From NCBI GenBank assembly GCA_026214975.1, contig CM047805.1, positions 5,456,001-5,520,000 of the forward strand: a DNA stretch of 64,000 nt, in the 5' to 3' direction. A program made the translations under genes and the position numbers. This DNA is from Gentiana macrophylla (taxonomy: Eukaryota; Streptophyta; Magnoliopsida; Gentianales; Gentianaceae). Shown here piece by piece: positions 9,561 through 53,459 of this stretch (the stretch's first letter is position 1; every line of letters begins with the position of its first letter). Under the pieces are notes generated by a model, which was not told the DNA's origin, ran no database searches, and saw only the letters and a list, made by a program, of their open reading frames with translations.

Positions 9561-9581
9561 ACGCCGTGTTGTACTTAATTA

Positions 9582-13150: not shown

Positions 13151-13214
13151 ATTTTTTGTTTTTGTTTTTTGTAGACTATATTTTCATGTGTTTTGAAGAG
13201 TTAGTGGTTGAAAG

Positions 13215-13222
13215 TTATATAA
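13215..13222 (-). promoter_or_regulatory. Probable TATA box of the second BAHD gene
   Basis: The minus strand reads CTTATATAAC about 65 bp before the ATG, matching the position of TATA motifs at the two paralogues. Confidence 0.5.
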
Positions 13223-13267
13223 GGTGCAACTGGTTTTGGCTCACTAGCCTTGAATTTTAATTTTGGG

Positions 13268-13271
<4 letters not shown>

Positions 13272-13317
<46 letters not shown>
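13272..13317. repeat. Poly-T tract of about 46 bp
   Basis: An uninterrupted homopolymer just upstream of the second BAHD promoter. It could be the tail of an integrated retrocopy or a SINE on the minus strand, or a simple repeat. The length may be inaccurate because of sequencing error. Confidence 0.8.
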
Positions 13318-13558
13318 CCATGGTATCTCCATTTGTGAAGATTTGATACTTAAACAAATTCAGACTACACATTTTAAATCCAGCTTGAAAACAAATTGTT
13401 CCGTACAACTTAACTCCACGTATGGAAGGAGGGTGTATATAAAGACTTCTTCCATAGTACATACATAATGAGGCTTGGCCACTAGGCCAAAGATGAGGCC
13501 TGAGGACATGGAGGTCCTAGGTTTGAGTCCTAGTCTAGGCAAATTTGAGTGTGCTTTA

Positions 13559-13836
13559 TATGCCTTCCGTCTCAAAATATAAATTTGTTTAATTTTTTGT
13601 ATTGTCTCATAATATAAGACTCTGTAGAATACCAATCTAGCATTTATTGCGTTGTATTCTTCATTTTACCCACTTATTTATTGTGAATTCACCAACTTTC
13701 TATGTTTTACAACTATTATGTTAATAATAGTCAAAAAGAATTTTAGACTATTACTTTTAAAATTTGTAACACTCGTTCATTTTTTTGAATGGTATAAAAA
13801 CTTTAAACAAACTTATATTTTGGGTTGGTGGGAGTA
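13559..13836. mobile_element. Stowaway-like MITE
   Basis: The left end CTTCCGTCTCAAAATATAAAT and right end ACTTATATTTTGGGTTGGTGG followed by GAGTA are diverged inverted versions of the CTCCGTCCCAAAATATAAGT family end, flanked by TA. Confidence 0.6.
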
Positions 13837-13839
13837 TAA

Positions 13840-14624
13840 TTGTGCTATTGTTTCCGTAAAAGAAAAAACCTCCATACACACAGAAAAAACAACTCTTTAG
13901 GGAAATGGAAAATAAGAACAACTTTTTTTAACGATCCGACCCGAAACCCAAGTAATTCTGGATCAACCCGTTCATCCATTACCAGAGATGTCGAACATTT
14001 TTTAATCTCGAATCACAAAGTCTCATGCTACGAAAATAGTGTAGAAGCTAAAACGAATAAACTCGACTTTCTAGACAAAGTTTAAGTTCATGGAGTAACA
14101 CAGTATCGAGAGAGAGAAAAGGGTCACAAGTTCAAATCACGCTGCAAACATACCTACCCTAAACAAACTAACAAACAAACAAAAGTTCAAGTGTTGCACC
14201 TCCCGCCAGCTTAATTTTCAGTAGAGATTGATAATAATGACCTCTCTTCTATGATTTCACACATATTTCACCCAATTTGATAGCATTTCGGCTCTTTTCT
14301 ATCGTATAAAACACGCTTTACGTGTTATTTTATTACTTTTGGTTGCACATAGCAGATTAATTGGAAATCTCATTTTTTTATCATGGAAATGTGGATCTTT
14401 ATAGCACACGGGTACCTTATACCCTACTCTAATTACGCTTTGTTTGTTGTTCGCGTCTTTGTTCAAGGTTTTCCGATTATTAATATAATCGGAAATGGTG
14501 AGATACGATGATGATAGCATGTTGTTTGGGCCGAGCTACACCCTCCATGCAGCTCAGTTCGCCGGTCAAGCCAGACCCTCACCTTATTCCTCCGGCCGAA
14601 GTGCTATCGACTCAGATAGCATAC

Positions 14625-14669
<45 letters not shown>

Positions 14670-14880
14670 GTTAGACTATATCTTTGCTAGGGCAATTTAG
14701 ACGAAAAAGAATAGAAAAAGATATTATTATGATATTAGATGGAACTATTATGATATGGATATTTCAGATTAGGAAGTACTGGGAATGGTCGAAAAACAGG
14801 GGAGTTCTACCCGTATTTTCTGAGCCGAAGAATGAGGGTTTAAAACCTCAAAAAGTTGAGTCATTTTATTCAGCTATTGA
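13840..14880. other. Intergenic, contains an (ATT)n microsatellite
   Basis: Nothing coding is supported. A perfect ATT trinucleotide repeat of about 40 bp occupies 14629-14669. Confidence 0.45.
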
Positions 14881-15830
14881 GTGAAATTAAAGCATGGGTT
14901 TTACTCTACTATGGATAATTCACCATCTTCTTTGTCGATTTCATGGGATTTGAGCTCTATTCATGTATGACACTCAATTGAAGTATAATTCCGAATTTAG
15001 CAATAATTTTCTGTTTGATGGCTTTATTTAGTTTAATTGCATCTTTGCTTTGTGCTTTTGTTGAGATTATGAGTAGTTAAACACCTTTGTGGCTTGGGTG
15101 ATGAATTTGGACTAGATATCTTGTAATTGCTTGGATTCAAGTTGGGTAGTCTCGTATGTTCTTAGTTTGTTCAAGTCATGATGATTGATCTTCATGGTGT
15201 GATTAATTTGTGACTAATTGCATTATCATAGTGTTGATTCGAGGCGTAATTGTAATAATTGGCATGAACACTAGTCACCATGAGCGCTTAGTAAAATCAT
15301 CTAGAGATAGAATTGATTTCTAGAGTGTGTGTTACCTAATCTTAGATTAGGCAATTCATAGCACTTTAATGCGTAGCCATTCACTCAAATCTAGTCCTAG
15401 CCGATAGATAGATGTTTGGTTATAGTTCGTGAATGCGAAAGATCGATTTACGTTAACTTAGTGAATTGCACATTGAATGTGTTGAGAACTCATTAGTGAA
15501 GCATGATTCCGAGTAGTTACAAGATCTTATATCTAATTCGCTGGAACATCACCCGAGCCACCTCGTTTCATATCATTTCTCCTTCATCTGAGTCATTTTA
15601 GCCTTAGTTAATTGCACTTTTAGTTTGTTTTCATAACTAGTTTAAGTTGCTTTTGTAGTTGATTAAAAACCACTTCTCAAGTTATGGATACACCTAACTA
15701 AATGTTTGTGCCACTTTGGTACTCAATTGAGATTTCTCCCTGTGGTTACGATCTTGACTCACCTAGCTAGACTACAGTAGACCCGGTACTCCGCCGGTAA
15801 GATTGGATACCTAGAGAGGTTTATCAAGCT
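14881..15830 (+). mobile_element. Tat-like Gypsy non-coding remnant
   Basis: The segment is non-coding and includes TCTCCCTGTGGTTACGATCTTGAC followed by CAGTAGACCCGGTACTCCG, the kind of phrase (cctgtgg-ttcga) found in non-coding parts of plant Tat-lineage Ty3/Gypsy elements. An inverted, diverged copy of this phrase lies at 16196-16275. Family assignment is from memory of such repeats and is tentative. Confidence 0.35.
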
Positions 15831-16195
15831 TTATTAGAGATGGTAGTTCAACAAAGTTTCCTATATCTCAGCAAATAAAAGGGTTTTATAGTGAAACTTT
15901 CTTAAGGCAACAACATGGTAAAAAAACCTCTCTACTAGGAGCCATTATCTGCTGCTACACCGAATGTGTCGTTGTGTAGAATTTGGACTTCTTGTAAGCT
16001 ATCTATTCTTCTCATAAGATGAATCTTCAACCTCAAGTGGTTGTGTTTGTCTTTGAGGAATTTGCTTCTGTGTTTCTCCTTAGAGTTTGATGAAATTGCC
16101 TTAAGAAGGTTGGAATTATCCATTACCCTCTTCTCGAGTTGCTTGACATGTTGCTTGAGAAGGACACACTGGTGACCAAAATAGTGACGACCAAC
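15831..16195. other. Spacer between inverted Tat-like segments, no gene seen
   Basis: A minus-strand 62-codon frame at 15935-16123 is rich in Lys, Asn and Leu but matches no family I recognise. Confidence 0.3.
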
Positions 16196-18800
16196 CTTGA
16201 CCGACAGAGTACCGGGTCGGAAGTATTATAGAGGTGAGCAAGGTCGTATCCCACGGAGAATTAAACGAGTACCAAAGTCGTTATCAGACTTAGTTTAAGA
16301 GAATCAAAGTTTGATCACGGCAAATTTATACTAAAACGATATTTAAACTAGAGATAAAGAGAGAAAGAGGCATAGCCAAATCACGATCCAATTGAATATT
16401 TTCGCCCCTCTAATAAATTATTTGGAAATGGAAACTACCAACCAACCATCCTAATGCTTATATCGACTTGTTCATGGGCGCAAACTCCTAAGATAGTAGA
16501 TGCCATGCAACAACCTAGCACCCTTTGCCCGGTTCAACAGTCCGCCTTTAAGGATTTAACTGACCGAAACAAGATTAACGTGCTAGAGCCGCTTGATTTA
16601 CACCGACAAACCTCGTTACGCAATCGATCTAAACAACTCAGTAAATTGTAATTAACAATCTTAAAACCCTTTTCCCACACCCCTTCGCAACATAAATTTA
16701 TAAAAGTGGTGTGTGTTCATGAACTAGGTGTACATTCTAATTCAAGCATTAACAACTGGTTTTAAGACATGAATTAAATCGATACAACAACAATTAAACA
16801 CTACTCATTCACAATTTCATCAATTAGAGGGTGATTTATTCAATCTTCACATGACTTGGCTATGAAATGTTTAGCTACTCATTATTAAACAAGAAATAAC
16901 AATTAAAGATAAAATCAAAGCCATGAAAGAGATAGAAACTAAGATTGAGTACCAAAATCGTAGCAAAAGTCGGATTACATCAAGCTCCAACACCACCCAA
17001 TGTCAATTGATGATGAAGAAGGACCAAAATGACAAAATCCACGAGTTGAGCTAGCAATCTAAGCTAAATTAAGTTTAATACAAGAGGATTTTATGTAGAA
17101 ATGAGTTTATGGGAGTAAAAGAGGATGGGGGTCAAAACTAATCTAATAGTTAGGGTTTGGGAGGATGGAGAATGCTGAAAAATTTGTGTAAAAATGTATC
17201 TAGGTGCAGAAAATCGACCCGGTGTGTCCGCACTAGACCTCAGTGTGCTTGCACTGAGTGTTCTGTGCTAAAATTGAACTTTCTGTCCGTCCCGCTAAGC
17301 GTCCGCAAGATACATCCGTGCGCCCAAGATCGATCCTCGAACTTTCAGCACTGACGGCCTTCAGTAATTTGGCAATATCTTTGGGTGTATAGCTCCGATT
17401 CGAGTGATTCAAGTTGCGTTGGAAATATCATTCAATTATCTACAACTTTAATGAAGATTAAAAGTCCAGAAAAAGCATGTAACTGCGAGAAAATGGCAGA
17501 TAAAGTGAATGTAGGCTAAAAACACCAACTATATTTGATCCGTTTCCATCCCCGTGCTTCGTTTATTCCACTCTAAGTCTCATTCCTTGTCTTCCGGGCT
17601 CTAACTCACCTAGATCCTGCATCACAACATTCAAACACATACCGAGCATAACTCCGCAAGATAACTAGGGCTCGAAAGTGGTCAAAATACCGTAAAATGG
17701 TGGTGAGTTTTCCATCTATTTGACTGTTTGCCTCAAAGTGAGTGTACAATGCATTTTGCCTTATAAATGGTCTAAAACTACCCAATACAAGCCAAAAGTA
17801 TCATAAATGGGGGTTAAAACATGCACTGATGAATAGTAAAATTGACTATCATCACATAGTAGTACTGTAGTAGTAGATGACATCTCCATGACCAATGTAA
17901 CTTATACTATTTGGGCTATCCCTTTACCACGGTATTGAGATGGTGCCCCGCAGCTCTGGTGAATCTTCTTATTACCCTATAGTAGAGTTAAGACGGTCGA
18001 GATTGGATAAGAGTTGAATCAAAGCACCCCAAAGTTTAGGACCTTCGAGTTTGGAGACATAATGATAAGAACCTTGTCGTGAGAGAATGAAATGAATCAC
18101 ACTTTCCCTTGAAGTAGGAGTTTTTGTAAGATTCACCGGAACAAATGGCTCTATTCTCTAGGCTCTTCCTCTGACGCCAAATGATGAAGAAAAGAAATCG
18201 CCGCGTGAAATAGTAAAATCTGAAGTTTTGGTATATGAACGTTGAGGCCTCCTATGGCGGCGTACATACATTAAACCACATGCATTAATGACAATGGGGG
18301 TGGGGGAGTAATGAAACCCATTGTTCCACAAAGTGGCTGCCTATGTATCACAAAGAGAAATCAAATTTTTGTGGTTCACAAAAGAAGTGATTGTACCTTG
18401 GTCATTGCATAAATAGACGTTATATGTGAAATAATACGTGAATGTGACGTAGGAAAAAAATCAGAATTGATGCCATGATAGTAAGGTTGTTGGATGAATG
18501 TGAGTGCATGGAGAGAATGTTACTCATACGCATATCCCGTTATAGGCTCAGTGTGTTTGGACATACTTTTATTCAATTTCTTACCCTACTAAGAAAACAA
18601 GATTATTCATTTAAATAAAATAATCGTCTCTCTCTTACTTTTCTCCCCCACGATAAATCACAGACACACGAAACCGATACGACTCAAAGTCTCAAACACA
18701 ATTCAATCAAAATTTACTTTCTAAATACATAATAATCCAAAAATTCCATATCGAAACTGACATATATCAAAAGCTTGAATCTTCATCAAAAAAAAAAAAG
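16196..18800 (-). mobile_element. Tat-like Gypsy non-coding remnant, inverted orientation
   Basis: The start (GAGTACCGGGTCGG, GTATCCCACGGAGAATTAA, CGAGTACCAAAG) is an inverted version of 15705-15795. Beyond it there is about 2.5 kb of degraded sequence without a supported coding frame. The right border is unknown and the assigned end is arbitrary. Confidence 0.3.
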
Positions 18801-18962
18801 AAAAAATTCAAAAGCTTGAATCAAACCAAGGTTGTGGGCTTGGGGTGGCTAAGCCCATCCATATATTTTTTTATGCCCATAACGGGATTCGAACACTGGT
18901 TTTCATACCAGATTATAGTCTAACTCACCACTGTAATCGACGTCACTCAAGCGCCATCTAGT

Positions 18963-19138
18963 CAAGGACGTAGCCAATGTATAGTTGTAGGGGGCTAAGC
19001 CCATCGGATAAAAAAATATTACACTAAAATACTTAGGTGGTCCAGTTTGATCTATATAATATTCTTAATCCAGCACACTCGACGAACTCTACATAGTCCA
19101 TTAGCCCATCCTAAGTCAAAATTCTGGCTCCGTCCTTG
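18963..19138. mobile_element. hAT-like MITE, copy 2, with 8-bp target duplication
   Basis: It begins CAAGGACGTAGCCA and ends TGGCTCCGTCCTTG, inverted copies. It is flanked by CATCTAGT (18955-18962) and CATCCAGT (19139-19146), an 8-bp target duplication with one mismatch, which is typical for hAT elements. It is homologous over its length to the copy at 2059-2237. Confidence 0.72.
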
Positions 19139-19179
19139 CATCCAGTTGTTTTCTTTGTTACGCAAAAAAACATAGAGAA

Positions 19180-19900
19180 TTAGGGATAAAGACAACATTT
19201 AGAATATTTTTAAGTAACATGACAACCCAATATTTTTATAGGGAAAATGACAACTCTTATTATTTTCATAGTCTGAAGGACAAAACCTAAAAAAACATTA
19301 AAAAAAATAAAATATAAAAAAATCCGACGCGCTGGAACGGACGCTGCTCCAGTTTGTTTGGTTTTTTCCCCTCTTTCCTCCCCTATTTTTAAACACTCAT
19401 ATCTTTTGATCTAGAGATTCAAATACTATAAAAATTTCACTGAATTTTTTACTTTTTGATGCTCTTCGTTTTGAGACTTGATTCGATATAATTACATATT
19501 TTTAGTAAAATTTACTGTGAAATTCACTCAATAATATTTACAGTGAATCCTCAAAATCAAATGAATTTAATAATAATTTCGAATAATAATGAATTTCGAC
19601 AGATGGATTTTAAAATCACGTCGAAATATATTGAATGTGATCAAAATAAATAAAGATAAAAAATAAAAAAATTGGTGAAAGAATTTTTAAATTTGGAGTT
19701 ATAGATTGAGAAATATAATTGTTTAAAAAAGATGAATAACAAAAAAACTATGTTGTTTTTTTTTTTTTCCTTTTTTTTTTCGGAAAAAGGCTCCAAAAAA
19801 TTAAAAAAATAAAATAAAATAGTTTTGCGTTTTATGTAAAAGTTTTAAAAAGATGTCATTCTCCATAATTGCTGAAATGTTGGTGTCATTTTTCCCCATT
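19180..19900 (+). repeat. Dispersed repeat family X, copy 1
   Basis: The core (about 19375-19640) includes AAACACTCATATCTTTTGATC, then TTTGAGACTTGATTCGATAT and ATAATTACATA. The same phrases occur in inverted orientation at about 40380-40640. It is non-coding and its ends are uncertain. It seems to be an undescribed non-autonomous element seen twice in this window. Confidence 0.55.
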
Positions 19901-19914
19901 TCCCCCTAAAAATA

Positions 19915-20021
19915 TATATATAATCCGGTACAACACAGTCGGTTATATTAATACAATCCACCCGACCATACATAGATAGTCCACTAGTCCACCAAACAAT
20001 AAATTATTGCCTCCGTCCTTG
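19915..20021. mobile_element. hAT-like MITE, partial copy 3
   Basis: Phrases such as CCACCCGACCATACATAGATAGTCC and the end GCCTCCGTCCTTG match the right half of copies 1 and 2. The left end is missing. Confidence 0.45.
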
Positions 20022-20416
20022 AATCAAACAAATCAAACGAAGAAAAGGAAAAACCCCAATTACAACAATATTTTTATTAATAAGACCAATTGATATTTGA
20101 TAGATATAAATGCTTATTATAACAACACACTTTCTTCCCCCACCAAAACAAAAACAAAACAAACGAAAAAAAAACACCACACTTTTATTAATTGGACCAA
20201 TTAATTGATAAGAAGACTCATATGAATTAAACACCACACTTTCCGATACGGGCATAATGGTTATATCACAACGGTGATTTATGGTTAAGTTTAAATTAAT
20301 CATGATGTAATCTAACATTATCCACAGTACAGATCACCCGTTGTGTCACTCGTTGTTGCACTACCATTATGCCGTATCATTACTCTTTCTGAAAAGTCAA
20401 ACACTAAAACATACAA

Positions 20417-21672
20417 TTATGTTGCTGTGTATGCAAGGAACTCTTGATCAGCTTCAAACTTAGCCATGTCCTCAGACTTGAGAGTGATCCAAGCCTCAAT
20501 GTCACCTTGAGATAATGAGTCCAAGAAAATAGCTATATTCTTTTGATGACTGCTGCCTAATCCAAACCACAACGGCTTTCCCCATCCGAAATCAACTTCA
20601 TATACTGGAAATCTACAAATACTCGAGAAAGAAAATGTCACCACCTCACCACTTAAAAATTTCTTCAAGATGTCATTCAAAGAATCCAAACTCTGGGTTC
20701 CTTCCGGAGTTTAGTCACATAAACTCCGTCGATATTGCGTATAGCTTCTCTCATTTTTCCACTACCCGACCTTCTTCATTATCACCAAGGGAAGGCACTG
20801 CGTGCTCAATGAAATTACCGGATAACTCATCGGGAAATGGTGGAACAGCCCTTCTTCTGATATTAACAGCATGAAGCTGAATAAATGATCTTTTCGGGTC
20901 AGCTTTCGCTTCAGCGCAAGCCAGAAAACAAGACCAAATAAAAGCAGACAGGGCTTCGATTCTGGTTGCACGCGTTGTGGTTGTGTATTTGTCTCTGAGT
21001 TCATTGATCTTTGAGGCAGTGAACACAAACCGCTTAGTCATTCTGCTTTCATTAATCAACCAAAGTTTTGGGTCAAATCCACCCAAATCTGATACCGGCG
21101 GGAATAGGGTTGCCCCGTCAAACACCGGAGCTCGTATATGAACAGCCTCATCATCCCCACGTGAAATCGCAGCCCAGCAATTGAAAAACAAGAAAGACGA
21201 CCAACCATCACCAAGTTTGTGAAAATGCAATCCCAATGGCCAGCCCTCCACATTTGAAGAAAGTGGTTTGGACGATAACACAAACATCATCTCTAACATC
21301 ATCAAGATTTCGAGGGCAAAGCCTATCCAATTCCTGTGGGATGGGTTTGTTTAAAACATCCAAAAGCTTACAATCAGCTAGAGCTTCCACAAACGGAACG
21401 CCTTCGTCGTTGCAGTTGACGTGGGTGTTGTCAACGATTCGTCCTGCAAGAGGATAGTAAATAGATAGTGTTTTTGATAAGGATTTTTTAAGATGGCTTG
21501 ATATCTCTAAATTGTTGAGGCCACCTGTGGCTTCATAGAAGAAAGTATGAGGCATAAAAACAGGAACAGTTAGTTGATCTAGGAAAGAGAACTTGTAGTT
21601 GGATACATCATTTGGTGTTGGGGAGGATGGAGGGATGATTTCTGTGGAAACTACTTTGATTTCAAGCTTCAT
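20417..21672 (-). pseudogene. BAHD acyltransferase pseudogene, third copy
   Basis: The sequence is homologous along its whole length to the two intact BAHD genes and in the same orientation, but the frame is broken. The N-terminal part (21672-21208) reads through SSPTPNDVSNYKFSF, YYPLAGR and CGGLAIGIAF, and loses frame just before the HxxxD motif at about 21230. The middle part (to about 20758) reads HKLGDGWS, then the NIRRR segment. A second shift falls in the helix corresponding to REAIR (about 20757) and a third near 20700. The C-terminal part (20689-20417) has DFGWGKPLW and ends LAYTAT. The motifs remain recognisable, so decay is recent. A TATA box is retained. Confidence 0.9.
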
Positions 21673-21747
21673 AATTAATATAATTTTTTTTTTCTTTCTT
21701 TTAGATTTGGGATTCTTGTGTGCTCAAAAGCTATAGGTGGCTGAAAG

Positions 21748-21757
21748 ATTATATAAT
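21748..21757 (-). promoter_or_regulatory. Probable TATA box of the BAHD pseudogene
   Basis: The minus strand reads TATTATATAATC about 80 bp upstream of the old ATG, matching its paralogues. Confidence 0.4.
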
Positions 21758-21809
21758 ATGCCAATCAAATTGTGAGACATGATTACTTGACACTTTTGAA
21801 CGCCTAAAG

Positions 21810-22520
21810 AATTATAAGAAGCTTTTACTTCAACCAATTGGTTTTAAGACAAATGATGAAGTCACTTGGTCTTAACTTGGTATCGGAGGCAGAGGTAATG
21901 AGATCGAACCCTGGTTGGAACAATATTTAAAAAATAAATAAAAATTATGCAAGTGTTGGGACAGATTATTACACTCTTGAATGAAAATTTTGTGCAAGTG
22001 TTGGCAATCACAAGTGTTGGACAGATTGCCAACACTTGAGGGTAGTGTTGGAATTTCTGTTCTTGAATCTTTAAAGAAATATAATAGTCGCTTTTTACTT
22101 CAACCAATTAGTTTTAGTCTGATAAATAGTAACAATCTAAACGCAACCAACACAAGTGTATTTTGTTTTGTAAATGCTTGATCTTAACACAACCAATTTG
22201 GTTTTAGACAACTGACACACTCTTGAATCTTAAAGAAATACAATGAGTGCTTTTACTTCAACAAATTAGTTTTAGTCAACGCTAAGTCATTGATATTAAC
22301 ACAACCAATTGGTTCTTGATCTTAACACAAGTCTATTTTGTTTTATAAGTCACGATGATATAATACAAAGACAACCAATTGGTTGCTTGATCTTAGCACA
22401 AGTGTATTTTGTTTTGTAAGCGTTTGATCTTAACACAAACGCTTGATCTTAACACAACCAATTTTTTTTTAGTACAACGGTAATTGCTTGATGTTCACAC
22501 AAGTGTATTTTATTTTGTAT
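21810..22520. repeat. Degenerate cluster of SINE-like repeats
   Basis: The phrases CTTTTACTTCAACCAATTGG, TTGATCTTAACACAA and AAGTGTATTTTGTTTTGTAA recur at least four times at irregular spacing. One unit contains GGTATCGGAGGCAGAGG then GAGATCGAACCCTGG, resembling tRNA-derived A/B box regions. The same CAACCAATTGGTTTTAAG phrase occurs at 5331-5660. Confidence 0.5.
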
Positions 22521-24050: not shown

Positions 24051-24520
24051 TTACGTGTTGGAGGTTAATCCCCAATTACAACAACCAGCAGAGAAAGAGG
24101 AAAGAGAAAACCCTAATTTTGCAAGTCTATCTGCAGCTAAATTACAGTCTCGTCGGATATGAGTGAAGCGGCAAATTGAGAAAAACTGACAAGCAGATCG
24201 GATTCTATGGATGATTGTACCAAAAGGTGAGATATCTTCTTCTTTACTGTTGATCCGACTGACGCGGGCTAAGGAGTCAGATTCAATTACAACAACTCCA
24301 CTCCACAACCGGGGAGCTTCTATGGTGCCTTCAAGAATTGCAGAAAGTTCTGCATGCTCAATTGATGTTGAAGATCCTAGATTGAAGGTCAAAGCTCCTC
24401 TAAGTGATCCAGTATAATCCCGGATTACTACCCCAGCCGTACCAACTCCATCACAAAAACCAGCATCAACATTCACCTTAAGGGTCTATCGATTTGGACG
24501 AGTCCACATGTGTGAGTAGG
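24051..24520 (-). pseudogene. RNase H-like (RVT_3) domain remnant of a plant non-LTR element
   Basis: An open frame of 141 residues (24476-24051) matches the plant RVT_3 RNase H-like domain: NVDAGFCDGVGTAGVVIRD (first Asp), EHAELSAILEG (Glu, helix) and VVIESDSL (second Asp), then CNLAADRLAKLG with the final Asp. The frame continues upstream through an in-frame TAG to WTRPNR..LKVNVDAG, the usual lead-in. The domain typically ends LINE-type polyproteins or stands as decayed single-domain copies. No reverse transcriptase is adjacent. Confidence 0.75.
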
Positions 24521-25197: not shown

Positions 25198-25672
25198 TCA
25201 TCTCGGCAAGCTCTAAGCCCGACCTCAGTCGGAAATCTCTAAGTCCAAACTCATCTCGGCAAGCTCTAAGTCCGACCTCAGCCGGCAAGCTTTAAGCCCG
25301 ACCTCAGCCGGCAAGCTCTAAGCCCGACCTTAGTCGGCCAGCGGTAAGTCCGACCTCAACTGACAAGCTCTAAGCCCGACCTCAGCCGGCAAGCTCTAAG
25401 TCCGACCTCATCTCGGAAAGCTCTAAGCCCCACCTCATCTCAGCAAGCTCTAAGCCCGACCTCAGTCGGCAAGTTCTAAGCCCGACTTCAGTCGGCCAGC
25501 TCTAAGTCCGACCTCAGCCGGCAAACTCTAAGCCCGACCTCAGCCGGAAAGCTCTAAGTCCGACCTCAGCCGGCACTCTAAGCCCGTCGCTCCACGCACG
25601 GCACCCTAAGCCCGTCTCTCCACGCACGGCACTCTAAGCCCTTCGCTTCAGGCACGACACTTTAAGCCCGTC
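25198..25672. repeat. Tandem array of about 18 units of 24-28 bp
   Basis: The core unit is GACCTCAGCCGGCAAGCTCT followed by AAGCCC (26 bp). About 15 imperfect copies are followed by three 28-bp variants with CTCCACGCACGGCACTCTAAG. Variation is mainly at CAGCC/CAGTC/CATCT and AAGCC/AAGTC. It abuts the Copia LTR exactly at 25673. Confidence 0.88.
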
Positions 25673-27479: not shown

Positions 27480-29110
27480 ACAATGTTGATGTGTTCTTTG
27501 GATCAATTTGATGAATATAAACGTCGTTATGCAGAGGCTTATCTAGTCAAGCAACACATGATGAAATGATGGATGTCTTGTGAGATGGACCACCGGAGAT
27601 TACAAAAGTCAGAATCGTGGATAATGAGATCCAAAGACATTCCAAAACCAAGAGAGAATGGACGGTGAAGATAGAAAGAGAGCCAATCTCAACAACATTG
27701 CTATAGATATCATTTACGTAACTCGGATAGCAATATGTATGAAGGTAAAAGATTGCAAAAGCGCCAAGGAACTTTGGGACAAGTTGCGCTTAATTTGTGA
27801 AGGCAATGATGTTATCAAAAGAACAAGATTAGTGTAGCAAAGAAGAAGTTCCAAGAGTTCAAAATGAAACCAAATGAAACCATTGAACAAATGGAATCTA
27901 GGTTCAATGCAATCATGGATGAACTCACCTCGCTGAGTGTGAAGTACTCACAGGAAGAAATCAACTCAAAATCTTGGAAGCTTTACCTCGCCAAAGTGTG
28001 GGAGATGAAGGTGACTCGCCATAGAAGAAATGAGGAGTTTGCATGAAGAAGACACCTTTCAAACTGTTTTTCGATCTCAAGGCCTATGAATTTAGCAAAA
28101 GCTTGTGCTGGCGAAAAAGAAGAGCCAAAGACCACTGCATTGGCTGCTTCACATCAAGAAGAGACATCAGCAATAGCCCAAGATGATTTGTTGGATGAGA
28201 TGCAAGAGCAGATTGCATTGCTGAGCAAGAAAATTAGATTGATGAAGACTGGAAAGAGTTCACCTAGGAATTTCACAAAGAAATTCAATGAAAAGAAAAA
28301 GGAAGAATCAAAGAAAGACAATGATTACTTGTGTTATCATTGCAAGAAACCAGGACACTTCAAACCTGATTGTCCTGAGTTAAAACAGAAAAGGAACTAG
28401 ATTATCTTTGCTTTAACTGCAAGAAGCCTGGACATTTTAGACCTGATTGTCTAGATCTACAAAAGAGCAAGAGTCAACAAAGAAGACATGGAAAGAAAGC
28501 AATGGTTGCTGAAGATGAATCTGGTTATGAAGTTGAATCGAGATAAAGGAAATGAATCATGATGACACCGCATTGGTTCTTTGAATTGGATGATTATGCC
28601 TTGATGGCTAACATGGATGAGACAGGAGGAGGTATGCAATTCTGTATCAATTAATACTCCTGCTGATGGTGATTGTGAATCCACCTGTGGTTCAAATCCC
28701 AAAAATTTTGACAATGAAGAAACTTTGGATGCCATCCTTAATCAACTGAGGATAATACAATCTGGTTATAAGGTTGTGAAGGCTGAAAAAGAAGCTTTTC
28801 AATCAGAAGTTGAAAGATTAAATGCTGAATTAAGAGTTCTCAAAGGAAAGGGAAAAGAAGTCGACAGAATCAAGATAAGCTCTTTGAACCTTCATGAGTC
28901 GCGATTCTCACCAACCATCTTGCTCCTCCACCGCATTCAAATCTGGAAAGCTTTATGGTGATAGAACATGGCTTGATTTGGAACTCAACAATCCAATAAG
29001 AGTGGATCCAGTGGAGTCATCAACCTAGTACCGCAATGGTCCTAAGTTTGTGCTCATACGAGATCCAACTCCCAAAAGATGGTTTGAGGAGTAAAACCTA
29101 TTGAGAAAGC
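27480..29110 (+). pseudogene. Decayed Copia gag (UBN2 type) with two zinc knuckles
   Basis: Fragments in shifted frames read ETIEQMESRFNAIMDELTSL (UBN2/gag region, 27879 on), QEQIALLSKKIRLM, and CYHCKKPGHFKPDC, a CCHC zinc knuckle ending near 28373. A second knuckle, CFNCKKPGHFRPDC, follows in another frame at about 28410-28450. The next block (28617-28961) is Glu/Lys-rich and probably coiled coil. After that comes WLDLELNNPIRVDPVES. Multiple stops and frameshifts make it non-functional. Order and PBS place it in a Copia element transcribed rightward. Confidence 0.8.
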
Positions 29111-30074: not shown

Positions 30075-30449
30075 TATTTGAACAAAACAAACAAATGTGA
30101 CATTATGTGAGTTAAACTCGGGGTTTTTCACGAATTGTACATATACAACACTACTCTTTATTCATGACAATTTAGTGAATATAATTAAATACGTGATTTC
30201 CATGTGCATTATCAAGTTACTAACAACTTTGCAAGCTCTTGGGTAGGGAAACTCAAATAGTGCAATGCACCTGCTAAATCTTATATACTATTAAACTGGT
30301 CTTGTGCCTATTTTTTAAATTTTTTTTTTTTTTTGAAGGGATATTGTACCTCTTTTAAATCAAGGTTTTTGGTATGACAATTAAGCATGAGCCACAAACA
30401 TCCTATCGTACTGGCATGGAATATCTTTGATGACCAGGAAACCATATTG
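30075..30449. other. Non-coding flank left of the CACTA element
   Basis: No gene is supported. The last three bases (TTG) are the target duplication of the CACTA element. Confidence 0.4.
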
Positions 30450-32173
30450 CACTACAAAAACTTATCTTTTAGCGGTGGATTTAAGCGGTGGATTTTACAT
30501 ATCTATGCCGTGAGTGGTATGATTTATCGGCGGGTTTTATATTTCATGCAAGAAAGCAAGTAAGAGTTCATTGTAGCGTTTCATTTAGTGGTGGATTAAA
30601 AAATCGGCCTCAAAAATTGTTTTTTGCTGGCGATTATCATCATCCACCGTTAAAAATGTAATTATAAAATTAGAAAAATACTTATGATTTGATTTACAAT
30701 ATCCGCCGATAAATGGATACTTTTAACATAAACGACTTTACTTTCTATTGACAAACCAAATAAAAGATTTCCATTCCATTTCACTCGTAAATGGAAGTCA
30801 ACCTATCTCGATGTCGCTCTCAACTTCGCCATCAGCTGCACTCGCGTGTTAAGAGAACACAAAATTCATCAGCTTGCAGTTTCGATTCAATCACGAGCGA
30901 TTCGGTTCCAGTTTCAAAATGGATTCTATTCAATTTCGAGCTCAAGAACAAGAGATGAAGGCGACAATTTTCATACTTTGTGCCCTAATCGTAGAAGCTA
31001 AAAAGCATGATGATCAACAAAAACATAAAAAATTGTGGAACCGCGATCGTGTTTGCGATTCTCGTTTGATCTCTCTATACGGAAATTCCTCTTCTGGTAA
31101 ATAATTAGTAAACTAGTTCAATGATTTTCTTAAATCGCCTGTATTGAGTCATCTTGTTGAGTTTAGTATTTGAAGTTTTAGTATTTGAGCAGAGATGAAA
31201 TTTTGTTAGAAATTATGTGTTTTCATCTATATTGTTATTATTCAACATCCTTTTGTTCTTTTTTCTTTCTTTGTCAAGCGCATATCACATGTTCGATGAA
31301 ATGGCTGAAAGATGTTCAGTTCTTTTCTCTTGTGTATTTTCATTAGTTGAATTTTCATTAGATAGTTAAGTATGTGTTTAAATGATTGGTCGATTGTTGG
31401 TGGGCTTTTCTTGGCATTTTTTAATCTGGATTTTAGTTGGCTTTGTTAATTTTTGTTTCGTGACTGGTCCTAGAGCCGGGTAATTACATAGTCTATGTTC
31501 ATTCTATGTCTTTTGATGACCTGTTTTATAAGTTGCTCGTGTTTTACCTTACACACAGAATTGAGCTCATTTTATTCCAAGTGTTGAGTTAATATATGCC
31601 TGAAAGCCTGATGCTTGATTCCCAGTCTCCTTCTACATCCAATTGGTTAGAAGATTGGAACCAACTTTTGATCAGATGGCGTTCTTAAGCAGAAGCCCAA
31701 GTGATTCACAGGCAGATTGATGTTAGAATGAAAAGGGTTCTAGGGTTCTGTAGCATTTTTCCACCTTGTTCAATTTTGTTAGCTATCAGCCTATCTTAAT
31801 GTAATGCTTTTTAATAAAGTGTGGTGAATTTGTAGCTTGATTGAATGACAGCTGAATTTGCAAGGAGGCAAAGAAGTTGCTGATATCTTCTGTATCCTTT
31901 ATATTTGTGGTCTTTTTAGATCTTTCTGTTGTGCTTGGTCGGTTATGTATTTTAAAGTTTTGTGCTTTGATTTGATTTTCTGTTTGATTGATTTATGAAT
32001 AATAAGCTTAGTGAGATGCTTATGAAATTGATGGCACTTAACAAGCAGTGTTTCAGTAATACAGTACTTAATTATATATGGTGTTAAGGCTTATCTAAAC
32101 AAAAAATTTTGAGAAATAACCAGTGTTGTATAATGACCATGTATTCACTGATTTGAAGATAGACTGATCATAA

Positions 32174-32482
32174 ATGGGGAAGAAAGGGAGTTGGTTTCAG
32201 CAGTGAAGAAAGTCTTGATCCTGAATCTAGAAAAAGACCAAGAAAAGGTATTGCGTTTTATAATATCAAGCAAGAGTAAGAAAATCTAATGCTTTTCTTG
32301 GGAGATTGAAAGTATTATTGTGAAATTTCCATTTCTAGAAAGCCCGTAAATCGAATGGATGGTTTGGGAGGCAGAATAAGCAGGAACCAGACAATTTGAA
32401 GACAGAGCCAACATTAGTACCTTCTACTACAGAGGAGATAGAACTCATTGAGGCCGAGAAGGAGCAGAGCAATTATGCATAG
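32174..32482 (+). pseudogene. Captured fragment of an IQD (IQ67-domain) gene
   Basis: The first exon (32174-32247) opens MGKKGSWF and, after a frameshift, AVKK, the conserved N-terminus of IQD calmodulin-binding proteins. After an intron with GT...TAG borders, the second exon (32339-32482) reads KARKSNGWFGRQNKQ and, further on, EEIELIEAEKEQSNYA, matching the IQD segment before the alanine-rich stretch (family: LTEAENEQSKHAYSVA). It then hits a stop. The family links calcium/calmodulin to microtubules, but this copy is non-functional. Confidence 0.7.
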
Positions 32483-32804
32483 AAATTCGGATGCACGGGA
32501 AGCAAGTTCGTCATCAAATACTGTTAGGTACTACTTAAATATGGCCTCTTAGACTAACTAGTTAATGCAATGTACTAAGAAAACTGTTCATTAGTACAAC
32601 ATTGATTCTGATTTCAGGGTACACCTCAAGAAGCCAAGCATATCCCGATTCCTGTTATATTTTTTCCTTTTTTATACTGCAAGCTATTTCTCGTATCAAT
32701 TCTTTAGTTTTTGGTTTATGCTTGTACTTCGGCATTGTCCATTTCAATGTATATGGTGAGCATGTATGGATTGTGATGTTGAGAATTTTCATGAATCATC
32801 TCAG

Positions 32805-32912
32805 GGAACTACTGTACGTGTGGAGCTTGGTGATTCAACTACTGCAGCTGACCCGTCGAGAGCCCACACCATAAGTCGCTCATTTCCTCACACTTATGGT
32901 CAGCCTTTAGCT
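32805..32912 (+). pseudogene. Captured exon of PPi-dependent phosphofructokinase (PFP alpha-like)
   Basis: After a splice-acceptor-like CATCTCAG, an open frame reads [18 protein letters not shown], then [18 protein letters not shown]. This closely matches the N-terminal region I know from the plant pyrophosphate--fructose 6-phosphate 1-phosphotransferase alpha subunit (GTTVRVEFGD..., [20 protein letters not shown]). The similarity stops at 32912. The rest of the gene is absent, so this fragment cannot be catalytic. Confidence 0.75.
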
Positions 32913-33186
32913 GGACAATGTATTTCCAGTTTAATTCTGTCTTTTGCAGCCTAATTCAATTGTCATTGTTATTACTAATTGCATGTACATTTTCCTGCCA
33001 TTGGCTGGTTCATTCATGGCACAAAATGAGAATGGGGATGACGGGAGATTGTGGAAGGGCATTGGAAAAAAGTGCATGACAATGTTGATTAGTATTTTAA
33101 AATGATTGGTGAGGTCATATGGGATACTTTCGGATCCGACAAAGTTTCGTTTCTGTCTGCATATATGTTTTTAAAGCTTATACTGA

Positions 33187-33592
33187 ATGGCGGCTAAAAT
33201 GGCCGTTAATCAATCCGCTGGTGTTCCATGGGTTATGTGTAAGCAAGATGATGCCCTTTATCCTGTTGTAAGTTCTGTGCTCTTTTGTTATCGTGCACGT
33301 GTCGATGTGTCATTGTCAAGATCTTATTTTTATTTAACTTTCACTAATTATGACATATCTTTGTTGCCTTGCTAGATTAATACTTGCAATTGTTTTTACT
33401 GTGATTACTTCACTCTAATAAGGCTCATAAACCACAGATGTGGACTGAAACTTGGACTGGCTGGTAATTTTACACCATTGTTTGCTTTTTAAGAGATTTA
33501 TCTTTTACTTAATTTATTGTCCTGCTGAAGATATGGCATTCTATGTTGCAAGATTTTTTCAAACAGGGGGCTCTTTTATCAACTATTATATG
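33187..33592 (+). pseudogene. Captured fragment of a GH35 beta-galactosidase gene
   Basis: Exon 1 (33187-33267) reads [20 protein letters not shown] followed by DALYPV. A GT-AG intron follows. Exon 2 (33376-33463) reads INTCNCFYCDYF and, after a frameshift, MWTETWTGW. A third piece (33567-33592) reads GGSFINYYM. All match successive exons of plant GH35 beta-galactosidases ([22 protein letters not shown] in the family; catalytic Glu in TEAWTGW). In the third motif the family Glu of MWTEAWTGW is kept, but the copy is too short and frameshifted to function. Confidence 0.85.
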
Positions 33593-34100
33593 TCTGCACT
33601 ATTTTTTACCCAGGCAGGTTAGTGAGTCCTTTTTACTATTGAATCATATTGCCTCCAACTTCAATCTATGTTTTTCCACTCTCATTCTGCATGCAAATCG
33701 AATTTCACAATTCCTCTGATTTTTGCACTGCTGTCTAGTATCGTTGCACATACATACCGTTGTTTCCTATGTTTTCAAAAGCACAGTCCATGCTTTATGA
33801 GCAAAATATGTAAAAGCTTGTCAACCAATGAAAGTTTCTAATTTTGGGCATCCGTTTCCGTGCTTCGGAAACAAAGTTCTGTAGCTTTGATAAAATATGG
33901 GTACGTGTCATGGGCTACTATTTTTAAAATAAAGAGGTACAGATAAAAGAGAGTATTAAAGGAGCGAATTCGGAGCTCGATCTGAGTCCATCGTTTCTAT
34001 AATGACAGACATTTGATCTTTCTCTTTCCGTTTGAATTGCCTCAAGTAAGAATTTGGGCCTGCTAATACTCATGTTTCAATGATTTGGATTGATTGACAG

Positions 34101-34275
34101 GTTTTTAAGGGTCCAGAAATGCAATATGAAATGACTGGGCTTACGTAAGTTGAATTGGGTAGTTCTCTGCACTGCACCAGGACATTGTTTCTGTTCTGAA
34201 GCTAATGCTTTCCTTGATTGCAGGGGAAGTAGTTTGGTTACATGCTGCATGTACTCACTTTGAATGCCCTGAGGT
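34101..34275 (+). pseudogene. Possible fourth captured gene fragment, unrecognised
   Basis: Two exon-like segments bounded by CAG and GTAAG/GTGAG signals (about 34102-34145 and 34224-34273) read VFKGPEMQYEMTGLT and then EVVWLHAACTHFECPE in one possible phase. I do not recognise the parent gene. The intron-like borders and the setting inside the Pack-CACTA make a captured fragment plausible. Confidence 0.4.
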
Positions 34276-35121
34276 GAGTGTCAAAGTGGAAACTCTGTAC
34301 TACCCCTGTTTTCAAAAAATAGACCAAGAGGCCTTTTGATGTCCTTCATGTGGTATAATCCTTTGAATTATTAAATATTATAATCCTCTCGTTATCTAGT
34401 TCTGGAAGTTTCCTCCAGTCTTTCTCCTGTGTAAATTTTCTTTAGTAGATGAATAGTCCTAGTCCATGTAATTATTTGTGTTTTGGAAATAAAATGTGGT
34501 GTTTTTGTGTTGAGATTCATGTTAGAATCAATTTTCTTAAATTTTTATTTTATTTTTATTTTTATTTCAATTTCTATTTTTTTTTTTATTTTTCTGGATT
34601 CGCGGTGGAGTGAAAATCCGCCGCCAAAACCTCTATTTTCCTCTTGTGATGGACTAAGTATTCCTGGCGGAATATTGAGTAATTGCTGGCGGATAGTAAC
34701 CGCCACAAAAAAATCTTAGCGGTGGACCCAAAAATCCGCCAGGAAAAGGCCTAAAACATTTAGCGGCGAAGGCAAATACGGCGGATTTTATACAGCCGCG
34801 AAAAATCTTTAACGGCGGATTTTCAGCTTTAGCGGTGGAAAAAATCTGCGCTTAAAAGCATTTTTTGTAGTGTTGCAATCAGCTGCGAATCCTAAAATTA
34901 GTTGAGTTGTGACAAAACATAAAAATAAATCGGCCGATCGAGACATGGAATGTATTTGTAGTTTATCAACCATCATTCGGATGACATCGATGGCATATAT
35001 AGAATCGACTCAAACTCAATCATAAGAAGTATCTCCAACAATAAAACTTTTAAAAGCTTTATATGTGTGCCTATCCGGGCACTCCATTTAACTCAAGCAG
35101 CTGATCCGAAAGAGGGATTGA

Positions 35122-35499: not shown

Positions 35500-38190
35500 A
35501 AGCTATTTGCTTCCGGCGCGCTTGGTAAATATGTCAACATTCTTGTTCATGAGGTAGTAACATAATCCGAGGGCAATCGGACCTCAATAATCGCGTCACG
35601 AACAAAATGACAATCGGCCTCAATATGTTTAGTCCGCTCATGAAAGAGCGGGATTCTGCGCAATATGCAATCTTTGCGACTATCCTGATGTAAGGAATCG
35701 CGGAATTCGGACCCTGAAGTCTCGAGAAGTTGGCGGAGCCACTTAAGTTCTGCGTAATAGCCGCCATGAACGATATTACGCCGGCGGATGACCGTGACAA
35801 CTTGTTTGTTGTTTCTTAGTCTTCCACGAGACCGCGACGTACCAAGGACCACGAACCAACTAGTCAACGGCGACGAGTGACCGGGCAACGCCCAATCGAA
35901 TCACACCACCCTTCCAAAGATAATGGATTATCGGTAGCGCAATAAAATGCCCTGGCCAGGATGTTTCTTTAAGTAACGAACGATGTGAAACGCGGCTTAC
36001 CAATGCCCAAGCGCGGGATTGCATAAAGCGAGAAAGAATATGGACCGCATAAGCCAAATCGGTCGCGTAACGCCAAGATAGATTAACCGACCCACCCGTC
36101 GGTATTTACGGGGATCATCCAAAAAGCGCTTTGTCATCGGTGGCCAACGGTGATTTTGCTCCATGGAAACTTCGGCGGGCGAGATCCTAACAATCAGATT
36201 CTGAATAATGTCCAAAGCATACTTCCGTTGGGAGAGAATAATACCTTGTGCATTTCTTGCAACTTCCAACCCAAGAAAATATTTCAAAGCGGCCCAAATC
36301 TTTCATTTTGAAACAAGCTGCTCAAGTAATTTTTGAATACCAGAATGCGGTAGCATTGTTGCCAAAGACAAGAATCATATCGTCAACATACACCAAGACA
36401 TTAATTGAACATCACCACGAACAAGAGTGAATAAGGGAGTAGTCCGAATAAGATTGTTGAAAGCCATATTGTTTCAATGCGAAGCCAATTTTGCAAACCG
36501 AAGAACGAGGTGCTGTTTCAATCCATATAAAGATTTACGCATCCGACATACCATATTTCGATTTGCATGGTCAAAGCCGGGAAATTTTCATATAAATCTC
36601 CTCATCGAGATCACCATGCAAGAAAGCATTGTGGGCGTCCATCGATGAAGTTCCGTTTCGAACGCGCCACCGCAAGAAATGCGCGGACATTCACCATTTT
36701 GTACGGAGCAAATGTTTCATGATAATCAACTCCTTCGACTTGGTGATTACCAAAGGTAACCGAGCCTTTAACATTGAAGATTCCCAACTCATCATATTTT
36801 TCGATTGTAAACCCATTTGCTCCCCAAAGGCCTTCTTTCCGGGAGGCAATTCTTGCAAGACCCACGCACGCTTGTTCCTTGAGCTCGTATTTCGTTGGCC
36901 ATATTTGGCGCCAACCGTCAGATTTCTTGCTTCTTTAAAAGTATGAGGAGGATGTCATGTGCTCACATTTGCTAGAAAATGACTATGGGCGTCAGAAAAA
37001 CAATTATAATCAACAAAGTGTGTAGCGGATATAAACTACCTGAGGAGACGGATGGACCGGAGGAGCATGCCGAAGGACTTTTCTTTTCCACGCCAAATGA
37101 GTCACGTAATCTTGATACCGAGTGTTGGGAATTTTTGCACGTTTCCTCTACCCAACTCCATCTGTATAAATGTTACCGTTCTTTGGAACCTCCGTAACTA
37201 GATCATCATGCTCCACACTTTGTCATCGCAGTAGAAGAGGTGACCCTTCAATCAAACCACTTATATCCGTATACACCTCATCATGTGCAATGTCGGAAAT
37301 ACACAGGGTGGGGGAGTGGAGGACAACTTCGCCCATAGGAAAGATATGTTCAAAGAACTTCACATCTCTAGACACAAATATTTCTTCAGTTTCTAAATCA
37401 AATAAAGTCCAACCTTTTTCACGAAAGGGTATCCTAAAAACACGCATTTCCGACTCTACTTTCAAATTTATCGCCCTTATGGCGTAAATTGTGTGCATAA
37501 CATAGACATCCAAAAACTCGCAATGCATCGAGACTAGGTGGTTTCTAAAAAGGCATTCATAAGGTGTCGATAATTTAAAACACGGGATGGAGTACGATTT
37601 ATTAGGTAGCAAGCGGTCATAACACACTCTCCCTAAAACCGCGGTGGGAGTTGACCCTCAAACCGTAGTAGAGCCTCGCCACATTCAAAATACGTTGATG
37701 TTTTCTTTCAACCCGACCATTACATTGAGGGTTCCCACACAAGATGTTTCAAAAATAATCCCTTCTTTTACGAAAGTCACGGAAACAAGCGCTTAAACTC
37801 GTTCCATTGTCACTCCCTAACCCGTTGAAGTTTGACACTAAATTGCCTCTCAATTAACGCAAGAAAATTCAAAAAAATATATTCAACTTCCCATTTATTA
37901 TATAATAAATAAACCCAGACAGAACGATAATAATCATCCACAATAGTCAAAAAAAATAAGAGGCCCCGCATGTAGAAGGTGTAGCATCTGATCCCACACA
38001 AATCACAATGCACGAGTTCAAAAATTCTACTAGCTCTACTTTCACTACGCGGGAAACTTTCCCGTGGTTGTTTAGCTCGGAAACAAGCCTCACAACCATC
38101 CTTATTGAGAAAACTAGACGCACTCACACTAGGAAGTTGTTTCAACACTTTTTCTGAGGGATGTCCCAACCGCTTGTGCCATAGATCCAT
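35500..38190 (-). pseudogene. Copia pol remnant: integrase, reverse transcriptase, RNase H
   Basis: Read leftward. The GAG-pre-integrase His/Cys region has WHKRLGHPSEKVLKQLP and C..C..AKQPRESF (38190-38070). The integrase core has HCDLCG and LTIVDDYYRSVWVYLL (first two catalytic Asp). The integrase C-terminus is at 37627-37223. RT begins at 36865 with GVDYHETFAPYKMVNVR, has YVDDMILV at about 36395-36372, and continues KYFLGLEVARNAQGIILSQR at 36287. RNase H ends near 35550 with HIEADCHFVRDAI. At least six frame changes occur. The element is dead. Confidence 0.88.
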
Positions 38191-38239
38191 GGATGTTGTC
38201 CCAGCTGATAGCCATAACCTTCACGTCTGGTACTCCCGG

Positions 38240-51404: not shown

Positions 51405-52110
51405 TTTTAGGTATAACACCGATAATATTGTCATTAATACACACATAACGACAATATAATTGTCGTAAAACCACCCATTTAGAGAACTGCTCATTATTGG
51501 CGTAACGAGGTAAGTTTAACGCCAATAATATTGCCGTTAAATATTTAACGACAATATTATTGGCGTTAAACTTACCTCGTTACGCCAATAATGAGCTTTT
51601 TGATGTTATTATTGTCGTTCCCTCTTCTTCTTCCCCAAATTATCAATTTTCTGCAAAAATCCCCAAAAATTCTCAGAAAACGATCTGTGCCTGCAGTGGA
51701 TTCTGAAGCTCCTTTGGAACAAATGTATCAAATTCCACAACGGGAGATAGCCCCAGAGGTTAATGTTAATTTCTATCTCTCATTTTTTTCGAATAAGAAG
51801 TTAAATCTTTGATTATTTGATTGTATTTTTGTTGTGCAATTTGTAAGAATACTTGTTGTTGTTTAGCAAGATTTTGCAAAAGGAGGGGTAGATTAGTTAG
51901 GGTTAGGGGTTGTTTTTGAATTTCCTGAAGAACAAGATGATAGATAGGCTTTGAATGGTGATTTTACACCAATATGTGGATCATTTTACGCCAATATTCG
52001 AAGTTATTGGCGTTAAATATGTGTTTAACGAAAATACTATTGTCGTTAAGTGTATGTTAACGCCAATAAAATTGTCGTTGAGTATTGTTTAACGCCAATA
52101 ATATTGTTGT
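51405..52110. mobile_element. Subterminal-type repeat array of a DNA transposon
   Basis: The motif TTAACGCCAATAATATTGTCG and its inverse recur at least ten times in two clusters (51405-51600 and 51960-52110), resembling the subterminal arrays of CACTA elements. No CACTA terminus was found next to it. The short frame between the clusters (51591-51812) is not recognised. Its GAG/GTTAATG end could be a splice donor. Confidence 0.5.
51489..51596. repeat. Near-perfect 108-bp palindrome
   Basis: Two 54-bp arms meet with no spacer at 51542/51543, and 53 of 54 positions pair. The outer part is GCTCATTATTGGCGTAACG and the centre GTTAAATATTTAAC. Confidence 0.92.
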
Positions 52111-52940
52111 TACGTTTATTATTTAAATTTTTTAGTGTTTAATATATATAATTCAATAAACATAGTTTGAATGTATATAATAATTTTATAGCCTTATTGT
52201 AATGGTGTGAACATAATTTGACATACTATAATTTTGAATGAATATTTAATAGCCCTATATATAATATAATTGCCTTAGTATAGTATAATGTAATCTAATA
52301 TTTAATAGCCCTGTATAATATAATTGCCTTAGTATATTCATATTCTCGATATCACTGACAATATATGTAACGAAAACGATGATGATGAATAACACATAAC
52401 AATAACACAAATAAGAACGAACAACGACAATAACATCGACAAATTCCGTCGCGCTTTACGGTGAAAGCCTCCACCCAAAGCGAGGTTCTTGTAGGTCTAG
52501 GTTGTTTCGATTCCACTCCTTCCTTCTCACCGATTATGGCCTTCCTCATGCCTCGCAAGAAATGAGGTCCTATAGAGACAGCTCGTAGAGGATTTGTAGG
52601 TTCTCTTGTTCATCTCTCCACAAAAGACTTGGTAAAGCCTCACCGGAAGTGAGGCATCATGGAGATTAGGTATTTCGATCTTTGTTTTGCCGGATTCGTC
52701 CGGCATCTCCATCACTCCTCCCGTGGTTTACTAACAAACAACGCAACTAAATGACACATAACTTAACATACAAAACCTCACCGTTACTTAGAAATAATCG
52801 ACTGTAAATACTAATGTTAACAACCAACAATGCAACTAAATCACAAAAATAACCAAACAAACCAAACTTGAAATCGTAACAAGTTATATGAAAATAGAGA
52901 CGACACGAATTTTACGTTTATGAACTTATATGCATATTTC
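52111..52940. other. Non-coding region between subterminal array and microsatellites
   Basis: The minus-strand frames at 52352-52715 contain no recognised domain. The two frames overlap around 52540. A broken small exon cannot be excluded. Confidence 0.3.
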
Positions 52941-53408: not shown

Positions 53409-53459
53409 TGTGTGTGTGTTATATGATGTAATACTTATGCATGGTCGTTATATTGTGAT

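What the first reader, a model, noticed from the sequence alone, without database searches (positions are those of the whole stretch)
30450..34872. Pack-CACTA carrying fragments of three or more unrelated genes in one orientation
Seen: CACTA termini, a TTG duplication, subterminal repeat arrays on both sides, no transposase. Between them, in the same orientation and with intron borders, lie an IQD N-terminus (32174-32482), a PFP alpha exon (32805-32912), a GH35 beta-galactosidase exon set (33187-33592) and a possible fourth piece (34101-34275). Known: CACTA elements can capture host gene fragments. Inference: serial capture placed unlinked genes side by side and could yield chimeric or antisense transcripts against three housekeeping or signalling genes.
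Basis: partly seen in the sequence, partly recalled or inferred. Interest (0 to 1): 0.85.

Follow-up and report, generated by a model that had tools for sequence, protein, structure and literature searches.

The report
Plant jumping gene carrying gene scraps
This is a plant transposon of the CACTA type, without its own transposase, that has picked up broken pieces of three unrelated host genes; it is a clear example of a well-known kind of gene-capturing transposon rather than something new.

Summary
The observation largely holds up. Window 30450-34872 (4423 bp) begins CACTACAAAAA, ends TTTTTGTAGTG, is flanked by TTG on both sides and has repeat-rich ends. Its six frames show no transposase domain. 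Three of the four claimed gene pieces are confirmed, all on the + strand: an IQD-family N-terminus in two exons (P0121, 63% identity, E 5.5e-20; tblastn 2.7e-13), a PFP-alpha exon (78-92% identity to the listed relatives; 86-92%) and GH35 beta-galactosidase exons (PF01301 4.7e-12; solved structure 3w5f 1.9e-30). The IQD and GH35 pieces carry frame damage, so no working protein is expected from them. The fourth piece found no relative. Copies and parent genes could not be sought: the genome search was unanswered in 10 attempts. Gene-carrying CACTA elements are long known (soybean Tgm-Express1 with five fragments, Tpn1, Pack-CACTA). Chimeric or antisense effects are untested here. Verdict: a well-formed new member of a known kind, of low to moderate interest.

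The parts
30447..30449 (.). left copy of the TTG target-site duplication
   Evidence: read directly
30450..30460 (+). left terminal inverted repeat CACTACAAAAA
30450..30720 (.). left subterminal region with GCGGTGGA/TCCGCC-type repeats
   Evidence: 3 strict motifs in the first 300 bp, resampled mean 0.09
30740..32173 (+). stretch upstream of the IQD ATG without a recognised domain; may be the captured IQD promoter, 5' UTR and intron (inference, no relative available)
   Evidence: no significant Pfam match in any of 6 frames (one chance-level match, MRP-S28 E 0.27, lies in this stretch); otherwise position only
32174..32247 (+). IQD-family exon 1 piece, starts MGKKGSWF and then changes frame (SAVKKVL in another frame); donor AAAAG|GTATTG
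32339..32479 (+). IQD-family exon 2 piece (KARKSNGWFGRQ...EQSNYA), about residues 26-72 of P0121
32802..32912 (+). PFP-alpha exon piece, residues 30-66 of plant PFP-alpha ([37 protein letters not shown]), open frame; the resemblance ends after LA
   Evidence: 92% identity to Olea and Fraxinus proteins; E 1.7e-16 for P0002 against the window
33190..33267 (+). GH35 exon piece [26 protein letters not shown], donor after CCTGTT
33376..33463 (+). GH35 exon piece INTCN...MWTETWTG, starts in phase with the previous exon, one frame change inside
33521..33592 (+). GH35 exon piece PAEDMAFYVARFFQTGGSFINYYM; the residues between TGW and PAED of the solved relative are missing
34101..34275 (+). claimed fourth piece; not supported
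   Evidence: no relative; frequency of such segments
34590..34872 (.). right subterminal region, dense GGCGGA/GCGGTGGA/TCCGCC repeats in both orientations
   Evidence: 10 strict motifs in the last 300 bp, resampled mean 0.36; folds as single-stranded DNA better than each of 200 shuffles
34862..34872 (-). right terminal inverted repeat (TTTTTGTAGTG on the + strand)
34873..34875 (.). right copy of the TTG target-site duplication

Best explanation
A non-autonomous CACTA (En/Spm) transposon of a flowering plant whose interior holds genomic, intron-containing fragments of three unrelated host genes: an IQD (IQ-domain) protein gene, a gene for the alpha subunit of pyrophosphate--fructose 6-phosphate 1-phosphotransferase (PFP) and a GH35 beta-galactosidase gene. 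Shown: ends, duplication, subterminal repeats, no recognised transposase, homology and orientation of three pieces, intron borders within the IQD and GH35 pieces, frame damage in those two. Inferred: it moves when an autonomous relative supplies the CACTA proteins, which act on the ends and subterminal repeats; the fragments were taken up as DNA, not as mRNA, since introns remain; capture probably happened in more than one step, for example by joint mobilisation of neighbouring related elements with loss of the inner ends (the model reported for Pack-CACTA). The pieces encode no working enzyme or IQD protein.
For: Termini, TTG and subterminal motifs; no Pfam match better than E 0.27 in six frames of the element; IQD, PFP-alpha, GH35; splice-like borders in phase for GH35 CCTGTT|ATTAAT, and for IQD exons 1/2 in the frame that reads SAVKKVL; published elements of the same anatomy; capture model.
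Against: No second copy of the element, no parent gene and no empty site could be examined: the genome search was unanswered in all 10 attempts. One terminal pair with a 3-bp duplication is a single instance; multi-copy support, which packFinder uses to remove singletons that could be false positives, is missing. Shorter (8-bp) CACTA-type pairs are in unexplained excess in this window.
Confidence: 0.93

Rival explanations
1. The element captured one already scrambled stretch of DNA (for instance another transposon carrying the three fragments) in a single step, so there was no serial capture by this element. This differs from the best explanation only in the history.
For: All three pieces lie in one orientation and close together (32174-33592); nothing in the data dates the pieces separately.
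Against: [quoted passage not shown] that supports repeated capture only in general.
Confidence: 0.25
2. The captured stretch is transcribed, perhaps from a captured IQD promoter (30740-32173), into a chimeric or regulatory RNA that affects the parent genes.
For: The IQD piece begins at its ATG with about 1.4 kb of upstream sequence inside the element; Tgm-Express1 and Tpn1 fragments do enter chimeric transcripts.
Against: No RNA data; frame damage in the IQD and GH35 pieces; the Tgm-Express1 transcripts that were isolated start from the promoter of the gene that holds it, and no gene was recognised next to this element.
Confidence: 0.1
3. The termini are a chance pairing and the three pieces are separate pseudogene debris.
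For: Four other CACTA-type pairs, identical over 8 bases and with matching 3-bp flanks, occur in the window, more than resampled sequence gives.
Against: The 11-base pair is expected 0.005 times per window; motif clusters lie at both ends and are absent from the middle.
Confidence: 0.02

Closest known systems
Tgm-Express1, soybean wp allele (PMC1947982; abstract, Background and Discussion read)
   Same: CACTA element with intronic and exonic regions of several unrelated host genes: five fragments in 5.7 kb.
   Different: Other genes captured; it sits in intron 2 of F3H1 and is spliced into its transcripts, whereas no host gene was recognised around this element.
Tpn1 family, Ipomoea nil (PMC5105172; passages seen)
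   Same: Non-autonomous En/Spm-related elements with conserved ends and interiors replaced by captured host sequence.
   Different: The transposase-encoding Tpn1 elements have 122-bp and 104-bp subterminal tandem repeats; here the subterminal repeats are short GCGGTGGA/GGCGGA-type motifs.
Pack-CACTA (PMC8903248; passages seen; the original Arabidopsis paper was not held)
   Different: Their elements are accepted as clusters of copies; copy number is unknown here.
LsC1, lettuce (PMC8195511; passages seen)
   Same: Non-autonomous CACTA element of similar size (3,913 nt) with a 3-base duplication and no transposase gene.
   Different: 28-nt imperfect terminal repeats; the passages seen do not say which host genes, if any, LsC1 itself carries.

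Membership tests
CACTA (En/Spm) superfamily | inverted termini beginning CACTA | tested here: met
   CACTACAAAAA / TTTTTGTAGTG, 11 identical bases
CACTA (En/Spm) superfamily | 3-bp target-site duplication | tested here: met
   TTG at 30447-30449 and 34873-34875; 3 bp according to a passage of PMC8978399, (a passage of PMC8903248 gives 5 nt for its rice and maize CACTA set)
CACTA (En/Spm) superfamily | subterminal direct and inverted repeats of 10-20 bp units | tested here: met
   direct families D2, D3, D20 and inverted pairs I1, I4, I5; criterion from passages
CACTA (En/Spm) superfamily | mobilised by CACTA TnpA/TnpD proteins | not testable with these tools
   an experiment is needed; no autonomous relative could be sought because the genome search was unanswered
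Pack-CACTA / Pack-TYPE | no transposase | tested here: met
   six frames against Pfam, one chance-level match (MRP-S28, E 0.27). The same scan also missed the GH35 pieces, so a short degraded remnant could be missed too
Pack-CACTA / Pack-TYPE | contains host gene fragments | tested here: met
   three genes
Pack-CACTA / Pack-TYPE | more than one copy in the genome (cluster) | not tested
   The genome search unanswered; only one copy in the window
Pack-CACTA / Pack-TYPE | intact parent genes elsewhere in the genome | not tested
   same reason; within the window no second IQD or PFP-alpha place with a meaningful score

The most novel reading that the evidence does not exclude
The element took the IQD promoter with the IQD start and now makes its own chimeric RNA that joins IQD, PFP-alpha and GH35 exons, acting on three parent genes at once through small RNAs.
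Probability: 0.04. Interest if true: 0.55.

Novelty: new member of a known kind. Interest (0 to 1): 0.25.

Why it matters
It is a complete-looking, multi-gene Pack-CACTA-type element from a plant whose BAHD protein has no close relative among the best 120 matches. Its value is as a further case for studying how such elements collect fragments; it does not change the picture.

Tried and rejected
Fourth piece (34101-34275): read as VFKGPEMQYEMTGLT, FGYMLHVLTLNALR and GEVVWLHAACTHFECPE. No relative seen in two protein searches, no Pfam match, and in the PDB sequences only three chance-level matches (best E 0.79). Limits: one search listed the best 120 of 276 matches (one search listed all 12), and both searches take only candidates of 0.55-1.75 times the padded query length, so a parent outside about 230-900 residues would be missed.

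P0001, an 880-aa Ilex protein with 107 bits, first looked as if it also held the fourth piece; its sequence shows a duplicated PFP-alpha start, so it is a double match to PFP and does not name the host species.

Many of the top named matches are asterids, so an asterid is my guess; no genus can be named. The six-frame Pfam scan did not find GH35 by itself, because its exons lie in different frames; the GH35 match rests on the joined reading. Pfam and the PDB gave nothing for the short PFP piece, and Pfam nothing for the IQD piece; settled both. Rfam and tRNA searches of the window: nothing. A literature search for orientation or antisense effects of captured pieces gave a list of mostly unrelated papers; I read none of them for this point.

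Full report
The element. Window 30450-34872 (4423 bp) starts CACTACAAAAACTTATC and ends GCATTTTTTGTAGTG. TTG stands on both sides. The two ends are identical over 11 bases when inverted. Such an 11-bp match at CACTA ends with an equal 3-bp flank occurs once in the window and 0.005 times on average in 200 resampled windows. With 8 bp the window has 5 such pairs against 0.24 expected (max 3 of 200); the other 4 are identical over exactly 8 bases and unexplained. Subterminal motifs of the type GCGGTGGA, GGCGGA and their complements cluster at the two ends (3 and 10 strict motifs in 300 bp each, none in the 3823 bp between, 26 in the remaining 59,577 bp), and one search lists them as direct and inverted repeats. 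The motif set was chosen after seeing the ends. The right end is the denser one and folds as a single strand better than each of 200 shuffles (z -3.92), as expected of a region with many inverted repeats. CACTACAA occurs in the window only at these two ends, and the element has no second copy in the window.

No transposase recognised. Six frames of the element with stops as X give one chance-level Pfam match (MRP-S28, E 0.27). That scan has limited power: it also missed the GH35 pieces, whose exons lie in different frames.

IQD piece. At 32174 an ATG opens MGKKGSWF, the start shared by the IQD relatives; SAVKKVL follows in another frame, and DPESRK, also parent-like, in the third, so exon 1 has at least one and probably more frame changes. 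A donor follows at 32247/32248, an acceptor precedes 32339, and the second exon reads KARKSNGWFGRQNKQEPDNLKTEPTLVPSTTEEIELIEAEKEQSNYA. The joined reading finds 12 proteins with E up to 1 among 46 candidates. Eight of the 12 are named IQ-DOMAIN or DUF4005 proteins by a source, three without a name carry PF13178 and PF00612 (DUF4005 and IQ; names recalled), and one (Cinchona, P0122) has no informative name. The best is P0121 (63% identity, E 5.5e-20), followed by two Cinchona proteins (58%). Because I chose the frames with the family in mind, the independent check is tblastn of four of these proteins against the whole window: all four have their best place at 32174-32479 (E 2.7e-13, 1.6e-7, 8.5e-11 and 0.002 for P0121, P0122, P0123 and P0126; the alignment runs across the intron and stops). 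The match covers residues 1-72 of P0121; what follows in P0121, including its IQ region, is not matched.

PFP-alpha piece. 32802-32912 reads [37 protein letters not shown] without a stop. One search gives 276 proteins with E up to 1 among 297 candidates; of the 120 listed, 119 carry the phosphofructokinase domain PF00365 (all but P0039), and the identities run from 78 to 92%. tblastn places residues 30-66 of four PFP-alpha proteins here at 86-92% (E 1.7e-16 to 3.0e-14). The resemblance stops after LA, inside what continues as HFLRATAKV in Ilex and tomato relatives.

GH35 piece. Three exon pieces, 33190-33267, 33376-33463 and 33521-33592, read [31 protein letters not shown]...MWTETWTG(W) and PAEDMAFYVARFFQTGGSFINYYM. 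A joined reading with X (it began the third piece at DM) matches PF01301 (E 4.7e-12, profile 172-269) and residues 183-273 of the beta-galactosidase in entries 6ik6 and 3w5f (E 1.8e-30 and 1.9e-30; that this is the tomato enzyme TBG4 is recalled). The first border, CCTGTT|gtaag ... ctag|ATTAAT, is in phase; the second exon changes frame between YFT and NKAHKP; the third lacks the residues that stand between TGW and RPAED in the solved relative.

Fourth piece. Nothing supports it, and open AG-(40-60 nt)-GT segments number 232 on the + strand of the 3.84 kb interior (no shuffled control was made).

Interpretation. The IQD and GH35 pieces keep introns, and intron-like sequence precedes the PFP exon, so DNA rather than mRNA was captured. 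All three lie on the + strand, a 1 in 4 outcome for three pieces placed at random. Frame damage in two of three argues against selection for coding. The 1.4 kb before the IQD ATG could be the captured IQD promoter and 5' UTR, but this is inference. No gene was recognised next to the element: the nearest recognised coding remains are copia-type pieces (28047-28400 plus strand; 35997-38220 minus strand). I scanned 30 of the window's 47 ORFs of 100 aa or more, so short exons could be missed. The Tgm-Express1 type of splicing into a host transcript is therefore not indicated here, though not excluded.

Comparison. Soybean Tgm-Express1 (PMC1947982; [quoted passage not shown] at least 12 distinct transcripts were found, 11 of them with cassette exons. 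Tpn1 elements of morning glory (PMC5105172, passages) have interiors replaced by captured host sequence, and one in the DFR-B gene gives chimeric transcripts. Lettuce LsC1 (PMC8195511, passages) is a non-autonomous CACTA element of similar size. [quoted passage not shown] A 2026 review (PMC13317346, passages) describes the proposed capture mechanism. CACTA criteria were taken from passages of PMC8978399. The finding is therefore a new member of a known kind.

Limits. The genome search did not complete in 10 attempts, so copy number, parents, capture order and insertion age are all open.

Noticed in passing
7039-8346 (-), 11882-13183 (-), 20751-21723 (-): A cluster of BAHD acyltransferase genes (PF02458): two stop-to-stop frames of 435 and 433 aa with HxxxD and DFGWG motifs, 61% identical to each other, and a third copy split over two frames. 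Among the best 120 matches to the first, the highest identity is 58% (P0135, named shikimate O-hydroxycinnamoyltransferase by its source); stemmadenine O-acetyltransferase- and vinorine synthase-like proteins reach 49%.
   Followed up: partly
53427-56118: A Mutator-like element: MULE transposase and SWIM domains at 54811-56118 (-) and DUF1985 at 53427-54146 (+).
   Followed up: no
28047-28400 (+) and 35997-38220 (-): Remains of copia-type retrotransposons on either side of the CACTA element and on opposite strands (CCHC knuckle; gag_pre-integrs, SH3-like and a sub-threshold RVT_2).
   Followed up: no
24051-24485 (-): Open frame of 144 aa with an RNase H-like domain (RVT_3, PF13456, E 4.4e-19).
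   Followed up: no
25203-25672: Tandem arrays of 26-bp and 28-bp units (TCGGCAAGCTCTAAGCCCGACCTCAG and kin), 14.7 and 3.6 copies.
   Followed up: no
51515-51570 and 52005-52119: Short arrays of 29-bp and 32-bp units rich in TTTAACG and GTTAA words, which might be subterminal repeats of another DNA transposon.
   Followed up: no
3018-22047: Four CACTA-type inverted 8-bp pairs with matching 3-bp flanks (3018/7702, 3018/12512, 3345/6529, 12212/22047), more than resampled sequence gives; several ends lie in or near the BAHD genes, so gene duplication may inflate the count.
   Followed up: partly
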